Made by a program: the position numbers and the translations under genes. DNA of 64,000 nt, from NCBI GenBank assembly GCA_951812535.1, contig CATOSK010000006.1:310001-374000 (forward strand), given 5' to 3'. This stretch comes from an uncultured Dehalococcoidia bacterium. GTDB taxonomy: Bacteria; Chloroflexota; Dehalococcoidia; Lucifugimonadales; UBA3495. Of this stretch, positions 22,852 to 24,888 are shown one piece after another. The stretch's first letter is position 1, and each line of letters begins with the position of its first letter. The notes under the pieces were generated by a model. It saw nothing but the letters and a program-made list of their open reading frames with translations. It searched no databases and was not told the DNA's origin.

Positions 22852-23934
22852 ATGAAAATCACCCGCGTCGAATGTCTCTTGTTGGACCGCCAGTTCCCCT
22901 TCGTCCGGGTCTACACCGACGAGGGCCTGGTTGGCATCGGCGAGTGTTTCCGCCGTCAGCCCGAGCTGGTCAAGTTCCTCATTGACTCCACCCTGGGCCC
23001 CGCCATCCAGGGCAAGGACCCCCTGGACACCGAGCTCAGGTGGCAGGACATGGTCCGGGCCGGTTGCGCCGTGGAAATGGGCGGGGCCGTCTTCTGCGCC
23101 GTCGCCGGGCTGGACATCGCCCTCTGGGACATCAAGGGGAAAGCCCTGGGCCTTCCCATCCACCGCCTACTCGGCGGCGCAGTCCGCGAGGAGGTCCGGA
23201 TGTACGCCAGCTCCCTGCGCCGCGACTTGACCCCTCTCCAGGAAGCCCAGCGGGCTTCGTCCCTGGTTGACGCCGGATACTCCGCCTACAAGCTCCACAG
23301 CGCCGTCCCCGGGGCCGTCGACGACCCTGCCGACCAGACCATCGCCACCGTCACCGAGGTCCGCCGCGCCGTGGGCGATGACGTGGAAATCCTGGTGGAC
23401 GTCAACGGCGCATTCTCCGCCCACCACGCCATCGAAATCGGCCGCCAGTTGGAAGACCTGGGAGTATTCCATTTCGAGGAGCCCCGACCCTTCTACGACC
23501 TCGACGGCCTGGCCCAGGTTGCCGACGCTCTGACCATTCCCATCGCCTCCGGCGAAATGATCTTCACCCACCACCAGTACCGCGACCTCATCGTCCAGGG
23601 GCGAGTGGACATCCTCCAGCCGGACATCGTCAAAGTTCCCGGCTTCACCGAGTTCCAGCGCATCGCCGCCCTGGCATCCGCTTTCGGAAAGCCCATCACC
23701 GTCCACAACACCCAGCCCATCCTCAGCACCGTTGCCCACCTGCATGTTGCTGCCGCATACTCCAACATCCCCTACGCCCAGGAATACAACATCGAGCCCA
23801 TATCCATCCGGGACCAGTGGCCCGTCCTGAAGGACCCGCTCCAGGTGCAGGGGGGTTGTCTCCGGGTCCCCAACGGTCCCGGGTTGGGTGTCGAGTTGGA
23901 CGATGACCTCGTCGACCGCCTGGCCCGGGCGTAA
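22852..23934 (+). CDS. Mandelate racemase/muconate lactonizing enzyme family (enolase superfamily)
   Basis: MKITRVECLLLDRQFPFVRVYTDEGLVGIGE...AVFCAVAGLDIALWDIKGKALGLPIHRLLGG. Confidence 0.92.
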   Translation: MKITRVECLLLDRQFPFVRVYTDEGLVGIGECFRRQPELVKFLIDSTLGPAIQGKDPLDTELRWQDMVRAGCAVEMGGAVFCAVAGLDIALWDIKGKALGLPIHRLLGGAVREEVRMYASSLRRDLTPLQEAQRASSLVDAGYSAYKLHSAVPGAVDDPADQTIATVTEVRRAVGDDVEILVDVNGAFSAHHAIEIGRQLEDLGVFHFEEPRPFYDLDGLAQVADALTIPIASGEMIFTHHQYRDLIVQGRVDILQPDIVKVPGFTEFQRIAALASAFGKPITVHNTQPILSTVAHLHVAAAYSNIPYAQEYNIEPISIRDQWPVLKDPLQVQGGCLRVPNGPGLGVELDDDLVDRLARA

Positions 23935-23964
23935 TCCTGCAATCCTGGATTGGGAGGAATTGCC

Positions 23965-24888
23965 ATGCGGATCTGTTCGTTGCAGCCTGGCGCTACCGAG
24001 ATCGTGTATGCCCTGGGATTGGAGGACGACCTTTACGGGGTTACGTCCAGGTGCGACTACCCGCCGGACGCCGCCGCGAAGCCCGTCGTGGTGAGCAGCG
24101 TTTTCGAGGGGCAGCATCTTTCCAGCGGGGATATCAGCCGCACCATCGCCCAGCGGTTCGCCGGCGGTGAGAAGATTTACAACGTGGACGAGGACCTTCT
24201 CCGCGCCGCCAGTCCCGACCTCCTCCTGACCCAGGACATCTGCGAAGTTTGAGCCCTCTCCCCTCGGCAGGTGGCCGAGCTCAGCGGCGTCCTCAACAAG
24301 GAACCCCAGGTCCTCTCCCTGACCCCTACTTATCTCGCTGATGTCCTCGAAGATGTCCGCCGGGTTGGGGAGGCTGCCGGCGTGCCGGACCGCGCTGCCG
24401 GTCTGGTGGAGGGGCTTCAGGTCCGCATCGACGCAGTGGCCGCAAGGACGGCCGATGTTTCGCGCCGGCCCCGCATTCTCCAGTTGGAATGGGTTGAGCC
24501 CCTCCTCTGCGGCGGCCACTGGGTCGTCGAAATGGTCGAGCTTGCGGGCGGAGACCCCTGCTTCGGCTCCAGGCACTCCGGCGCGTCCCGCCTGGAATGG
24601 GACGATGTGGTCGCCAGCCGGCCGGATATGGTGCTATTCATGCCCTGCGGCTTCGACCTACCCCGCGCCATGGAGGACGTCCCCATCCTCACTTCTCTCC
24701 CCGGCTGGAGCTCCCTCCCCGCGGTCCAACGCGGAAATGTCTACGTAGTTGACGGAGGCGCCTACACCAGCCGCCTGGGACCCCGCCTGGTCACCGGCCT
24801 GGAAATCCTGGCCGAACTCATCCAGCCCGACCTGTTCTCCGGGATGATTCCAGCCAACTCCGTCCAGCGCATACTCTCCCCGGGCTGA
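23965..24888 (+). CDS. BtuF-like cobalamin/metal-binding ABC substrate-binding protein read through an in-frame TGA (candidate selenoprotein)
   Basis: [33 protein letters not shown]...[10 protein letters not shown][TGA][14 protein letters not shown]...[14 protein letters not shown]...MPCGFDL; same frame continues 636 nt after TGA 24250-24252. Confidence 0.7.
24253..24279 (+). promoter_or_regulatory. Candidate bacterial SECIS hairpin
   Basis: CTCGGC (24263-24268)-AGGTG-GCCGAG (24274-24279); loop begins 17 nt after the last base of TGA. Confidence 0.6.

What the first reader, a model, noticed from the sequence alone, without database searches (positions are those of the whole stretch)
23965..24888. 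Candidate undescribed selenoprotein: BtuF-like substrate-binding protein with in-frame TGA in a CxxU motif
Seen directly: the frame [18 protein letters not shown]...[25 protein letters not shown]... is interrupted only by TGA at 24250-24252. It then stays open for 636 nt, with recognisable family motifs ([21 protein letters not shown]) before and after. Established: cobalamin/iron ABC substrate-binding proteins of this type commonly read TQ[ED]LCxVCA here, so TGA sits on the second Cys of a CxxC. Sec/Cys exchange is the classic selenoprotein signature. I do not recall this family among listed bacterial selenoproteins. Inference: UGA is read as Sec, giving CxxU. A single TGC->TGA nonsense mutation or sequencing error remains the main alternative.
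Basis: partly seen in the sequence, partly recalled or inferred. Interest (0 to 1): 0.9.

Follow-up and report, generated by a model that had tools for sequence, protein, structure and literature searches.

The report
Selenocysteine form of BtuF-like cytosolic protein
A bacterium of the phylum Chloroflexota reads a stop signal inside this gene as the rare amino acid selenocysteine; the evidence that it does so is very strong, but a selenoprotein of this type had already been listed, so the news is mainly in what the protein may be.

Summary
In detail: window 23965-24888 is one frame broken only by TGA at 24250-24252, and the protein is a Peripla_BP_2 (BtuF-fold) protein with Cys at that site in relatives. 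The selenocysteine reading is strongly supported. The genome has selA, selB, selD (itself with an in-frame TGA) and a tRNA-Sec with anticodon TCA. A second paralogue has TGA at the same codon. So do 45 of 50 genomes of the family and two in sister families, all one clade nested among Cys forms. A hairpin (6-bp stem, AGGTN loop) starts 10 nt after the TGA, is kept by synonymous-codon constraint and compensatory changes, and is absent from the Cys genes. Error or nonsense mutation is excluded for practical purposes. The novelty claim fails: 'cobalamin-binding protein BtuF, cd01144, CxxU' is already in published lists of predicted bacterial selenoproteins. What those lists do not say: the protein has no signal peptide and no transporter partner nearby, lacks most residues with which E. 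coli BtuF holds cobalamin, and has four invariant Cys/Sec that the model puts in loops at the ligand cleft. It is probably a cytosolic redox or metal-complex protein, not an uptake protein. Function unproven.

The parts
23952..23957 (+). Shine-Dalgarno-like GGGAGG before the ATG
   Evidence: sequence; the previous gene stops at 23932-23934, so no N-terminal signal peptide can precede the ATG
23965..24888 (+). Sec-containing BtuF-fold protein, 307 residues with Sec96
   Evidence: AlphaFold pLDDT 95.6
24241..24252 (+). CxxU motif codons (TGC GAA GTT TGA): Cys93 to Sec96
24250..24252 (+). in-frame TGA read as selenocysteine
   Evidence: TGA at this codon in all 41 distinct Sec loci of the family and in 2 sister-family loci; TGC/TGT in the Cys relatives
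24263..24279 (+). bSECIS-like hairpin CTCGGC-AGGTG-GCCGAG
   Evidence: stem kept in Sec genes, absent in Cys genes; codon constraint; covariation

Best explanation
The gene makes a full-length selenoprotein. SelA makes Sec on tRNA-Sec(UCA); SelB binds the hairpin 10 nt after the UGA and puts Sec at residue 96, giving a CxxU motif. This decoding step is inferred from sequence but with very strong support, and the confidence below is for this step. The product is a leaderless, hence cytosolic, BtuF-fold protein with no ABC partner next to it. Four invariant thiol/selenol positions (Cys30, Cys93, Sec96, Cys228) sit in loops right after beta strands, where this fold holds its ligand. My best guess at function, marked as inference (about 0.5): a cytosolic redox protein or receptor/reductase for a metal complex (corrinoid, haem-like or metal ion), in which Sec replaces a Cys of the CxxC to speed a redox or ligand-exchange step.
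For: Own genome: selA 560 bits, selD 395 bits with its own TGA at the Cys17 site and a perfect 8-bp hairpin, selB 355 bits, tRNA-Sec 67 bits with TCA anticodon. Second TGA paralogue in the same genome. TGA orthologue in 45/50 family genomes; all 43 selA-positive genomes have it, and all 5 without it also lack selA (p about 1e-5). Two further TGA genomes in sister families. Sec rows are one clade nested among Cys rows, support 100/98. Hairpin: 37 of 41 distinct Sec loci keep 6/6 pairs and 4 keep 5/6; Cys genes keep 0-5, mostly 2-3. Three of six pairs show changes on both sides, 0/500 shuffles as high. Codon R101 is CGG in 38/38, the most constrained of 159 columns; codons 101, 102, 104, 105 rank in the top 12, while codon 103, whose wobble base lies in the loop, ranks 91. 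Leaderless: several orthologues have a stop 1-5 codons before the ATG. No recurrent permease or ATPase neighbour; a complete SBP-permease-ATPase set with a lipoprotein-type SBP is elsewhere in the genome.
Against: No protein-level or Se-labelling data. The hairpin region of the window gene does not fold more stably than shuffles (z 0.00); the support is from conservation, not energy. L150 keeps only 4 of 6 pairs. The selA/TGA co-occurrence is confounded by completeness, since the MAGs without both are 56-75% complete. The functional guess rests on conserved residues and a predicted fold only; no ligand, partner or operon context was found.
Confidence: 0.96

Rival explanations
1. A single TGC to TGA nonsense mutation or sequencing error in one MAG.
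For: One base change would produce it; the window alone cannot exclude it.
Against: Same TGA in a 58% identical paralogue in the same genome, in 45 of 50 family genomes and in two sister-family genomes, with both halves under purifying selection.
Confidence: 0.005
2. Two separate genes or a truncated product: UGA stops translation and a second protein starts at GTG 24271.
For: A GTG-started ORF 24271-24888 exists.
Against: Both halves align end to end with unbroken Cys relatives and the whole is predicted as one confident fold. The codons after the TGA are constrained as RNA, not only as protein. Some partial termination at UGA is expected in any Sec gene.
Confidence: 0.01
3. The organism uses a changed code in which UGA is a general sense codon (Trp, Gly or Cys).
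For: TGA is read through in this gene.
Against: The gene itself and a nearby enoyl-CoA hydratase-like gene end in TGA; the in-frame TGAs seen here are at Cys sites of Sec-type genes (this family, SelD); the full Sec system is present.
Confidence: 0.005
4. It is a true periplasmic cobalamin-binding protein (BtuF) of an ABC importer, as the published tables name it (compatible with Sec decoding).
For: Peripla_BP_2 family; V. cholerae and E. coli BtuF among the nearest solved folds and sequences.
Against: No signal peptide; no BtuC/BtuD nearby; below the NCBIfam BtuF cut-off, 34 against 234 bits; BtuF contacts Y50, W66, W85, F162, W196 align to E/R, gap, Q, E, S/A. Haem-binding proteins score equally well as folds.
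Confidence: 0.1

Closest known systems
Cobalamin-binding protein BtuF selenoprotein (cd01144, CxxU) listed in PMC9312934 and PMC13188914, after Peng et al. 2016
   Same: same fold family, same CxxU motif
   Different: the listed examples (RUA21600.1, MDE0719563.1) could not be compared by sequence here; the tables give no SECIS, localisation, phylogeny or function; the main text of Peng 2016 does not mention it
E. coli / V. cholerae BtuF (1n2z, 5ysc)
   Same: class III substrate-binding fold, TM-score normalised by target about 0.81-0.82
   Different: BtuF is exported, works with BtuCD, and holds cobalamin with aromatic residues that are mostly missing here (contacts from PMC5269720)
SaoB and SaoX, ABC-transporter substrate-binding selenoproteins (Haft and Gwadz 2023, as cited in PMC13188914)
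   Same: predicted Sec in a substrate-binding-protein-like product
   Different: other motifs (CUxxT, UxP), and transporter subunits by annotation; not compared by sequence here
Leaderless Cys homologues across Chloroflexota and haloarchaea
   Same: same invariant C30, C93, C96, C228; up to 49% identity
   Different: Cys instead of Sec, no hairpin after the codon

Membership tests
Bacterial selenoprotein (UGA = Sec) | in-frame TGA aligned with Cys in homologues | tested here: met
Bacterial selenoprotein (UGA = Sec) | selA, selB, selC and selD in the genome | tested here: met
Bacterial selenoprotein (UGA = Sec) | bSECIS hairpin just after the UGA with G near the start of the loop | tested here: met
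   the bSECISearch program itself was not available
Bacterial selenoprotein (UGA = Sec) | Se incorporation shown in the protein | not testable with these tools
   needs mass spectrometry or 75Se
Published BtuF CxxU selenoprotein family | BtuF-type fold (cd01144 / Peripla_BP_2) with CxxU | tested here: met
   cd01144 itself not scanned
Published BtuF CxxU selenoprotein family | sequence similarity to the listed examples | not tested
BtuF, periplasmic vitamin B12 receptor | signal peptide or lipobox | tested here: not met
BtuF, periplasmic vitamin B12 receptor | encoded with or near BtuC/BtuD | tested here: not met
   (E. coli btuF is itself not next to btuCD, so this alone is weak)
BtuF, periplasmic vitamin B12 receptor | aromatic cobalamin contacts Y50, W66, W85, F162, F168, W196 | tested here: not met
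   only F168 has M/F/L/Y/W; others E/R, gap, Q, E, S/A
BtuF, periplasmic vitamin B12 receptor | class III SBP fold | tested here: met

The most novel reading that the evidence does not exclude
A cytosolic protein family with a transporter receptor's fold has been turned into a thiol/selenol redox or metal-handling enzyme: four Cys/Sec line the cleft where BtuF holds cobalamin with aromatics, and one Chloroflexota lineage changed one Cys to Sec once and then kept and duplicated it. If so it is a new kind of selenoenzyme activity, not an uptake protein.
Probability: 0.35. Interest if true: 0.7.

Novelty: new member of a known kind. Interest (0 to 1): 0.4.

Why it matters
It confirms with independent evidence a selenoprotein family that so far stands, in the papers I could read, only as one line in published tables, and it suggests that the name BtuF is misleading. 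No NCBIfam model comes near its cut-off for the window protein, so such genes are likely to be annotated as two fragments (inference). A Cys to Sec switch kept in 45 genomes suggests that residue 96 does redox or metal chemistry, which makes the unknown function of a widespread leaderless Cys family testable.

Tried and rejected
Rfam scan of the window at gathering thresholds: nothing (I know of no bacterial SECIS model that should have hit). Folding energy of the window hairpin against shuffles: not significant. TGA or TAG stops reported in f132 genomes were checked where fetched (L117, L125, L126, L127): these genes have Cys codons at the site, and in L117 the stop lies near the C-terminus. 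Two long homologues (L066, L075, 610-614 aa) looked like fusions that might give a functional clue; Pfam sees no second domain. Gene neighbours: Lon-N, Na/H exchanger, MOSC and TenA/haem-oxygenase-like genes recur in some loci of the other Sec subclades but not at the window gene; no functional link drawn. Literature searches for a characterised leaderless member found none.

Full report
What is there. Window 23965-24888 (+) is a 307-residue reading frame, broken only by TGA at 24250-24252, and it ends in its own TGA. It belongs to Pfam Peripla_BP_2. It begins at an ATG with a good Shine-Dalgarno sequence, 30 nt after the stop of an enolase-superfamily gene.

Is the TGA real and selected? The whole genome (3.6 Mb, 14 contigs, 97% complete) holds four full-length relatives. 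Two, at 58% identity to each other, both have TGA at this codon; two others have Cys. In the family, 45 of 50 genomes have a TGA form. At the site, all fetched family Sec loci read TGA and the Cys relatives read TGC or TGT; two other hits had different codons there, in contexts that look misaligned. Searching 393 class genomes and 400 phylum genomes at strict thresholds found the Sec form only in this family. Among 250 genomes of the order, two further TGA forms appear in two sister families, and they too have TGA at this codon. Sec rows form one clade (100/98) nested among Cys rows of the same order. The simplest history is one Cys to Sec change, followed by duplication within the family. Both halves of the gene are under purifying selection. 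This rules out a local mutation or a sequencing error. Named relatives that carry the same TGA are MAGs labelled Chloroflexi bacterium (B80T1B5, B28T3L11, SAT91).

Is the machinery there? Yes: selA, selB, selD and tRNA-Sec with anticodon TCA. SelD is itself a TGA gene: SHCAG-U-AAK, where E. coli SelD has Cys17 (the E. coli residue is from my own knowledge), with a perfect 8-bp hairpin downstream. In the family all 43 genomes with selA have the TGA gene; the five without the TGA gene lack selA too. These five are incomplete genomes, so this test is supportive only.

Is there a SECIS? Ten nt after the TGA stands CTCGGC-AGGTN-GCCGAG. It is intact (6/6) in 37 of 41 distinct Sec loci and 5/6 in the other four; Cys genes have mostly two or three of six. 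In the sister-family genome G821 the stem is CGCGAC/GTCGCG with the same loop. Three of six pairs have double-sided changes, and no shuffle of 500 reached this. At the codon level, Arg101 is CGG in all 38 genes that have Arg, the strongest constraint of 159 columns. Stem codons 101, 102, 104 and 105 are all in the top 12, while codon 103, whose third base lies in the loop, is free. Thermodynamic stability alone is not remarkable. From general knowledge, a bacterial SECIS has an apical loop with a G in its first two positions at about 16-37 nt from the UGA; here the loop is AGG..., starting about 17 nt after the TGA.

What does the protein do? The predicted fold is that of class III substrate-binding proteins (pLDDT 95.6), with haem- and cobalamin-binding proteins as nearest solved structures. 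But it is leaderless: several orthologues have a stop within 1-5 codons upstream of the ATG. It is not next to a permease or ATPase. The same genome has a lipoprotein-type receptor with permease and ATPase elsewhere. The residues with which E. coli BtuF holds cobalamin (Y50, W66, W85, F162, F168, W196; PMC5269720) are mostly replaced: E/R, gap, Q, E, M/F/L, S/A. That points to a cytosolic thiol/selenol protein handling a metal complex or a redox step. BtuM, a B12 transporter with a cysteine ligand to cobalt that removes cyanide (PMC6072759), shows that such chemistry is possible; it is an analogy, not evidence.

Is it new? The selenoprotein family is not: 'Cobalamin-binding protein BtuF, cd01144, CxxU' is in the tables of PMC9312934 and PMC13188914, both citing Peng et al. 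2016; the main text of that paper does not mention it. I could not compare sequences with the listed accessions. New here, as far as the held library shows: the hairpin and its covariation, the single origin and distribution in one Chloroflexota order, the duplication, the absence of a signal peptide and transporter partner, and the loss of most of BtuF's cobalamin contacts.

Noticed in passing
L012 (own genome C2:81782-82699): selD is itself a selenoprotein gene: TGA at the catalytic Cys site with an AAGACCTG-GTA-CAGGTCTT hairpin that starts 22 nt after the first base of the TGA.
   Followed up: partly
L002/L009 (own genome C4:520456-521370): Second Sec paralogue in the same genome, near a Na/H-exchanger-type gene and a Lon substrate-binding-domain gene; this neighbourhood recurs in the family.
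   Followed up: partly
L129, L130, L131: In three fetched loci of genera g14 and g15 of the family the Sec gene is preceded by a TenA/haem-oxygenase-like (iron-containing redox enzyme) gene, and a MOSC-domain gene lies nearby. A possible functional hint.
   Followed up: partly
L066:147-1976 and L075:1501-3342: Cys homologues of 610-614 aa with a C-terminal half that matches no Pfam family.
   Followed up: partly
window 23167-24576 (-): A 469-aa antisense ORF overlaps the gene; most likely a by-product of GC-rich codon usage.
   Followed up: no
L145 (own genome, C6 about 23.6-26.7 kb): Complete lipoprotein-type receptor, FecCD permease and ATPase cluster: an ordinary metal-complex or corrinoid importer.
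   Followed up: partly
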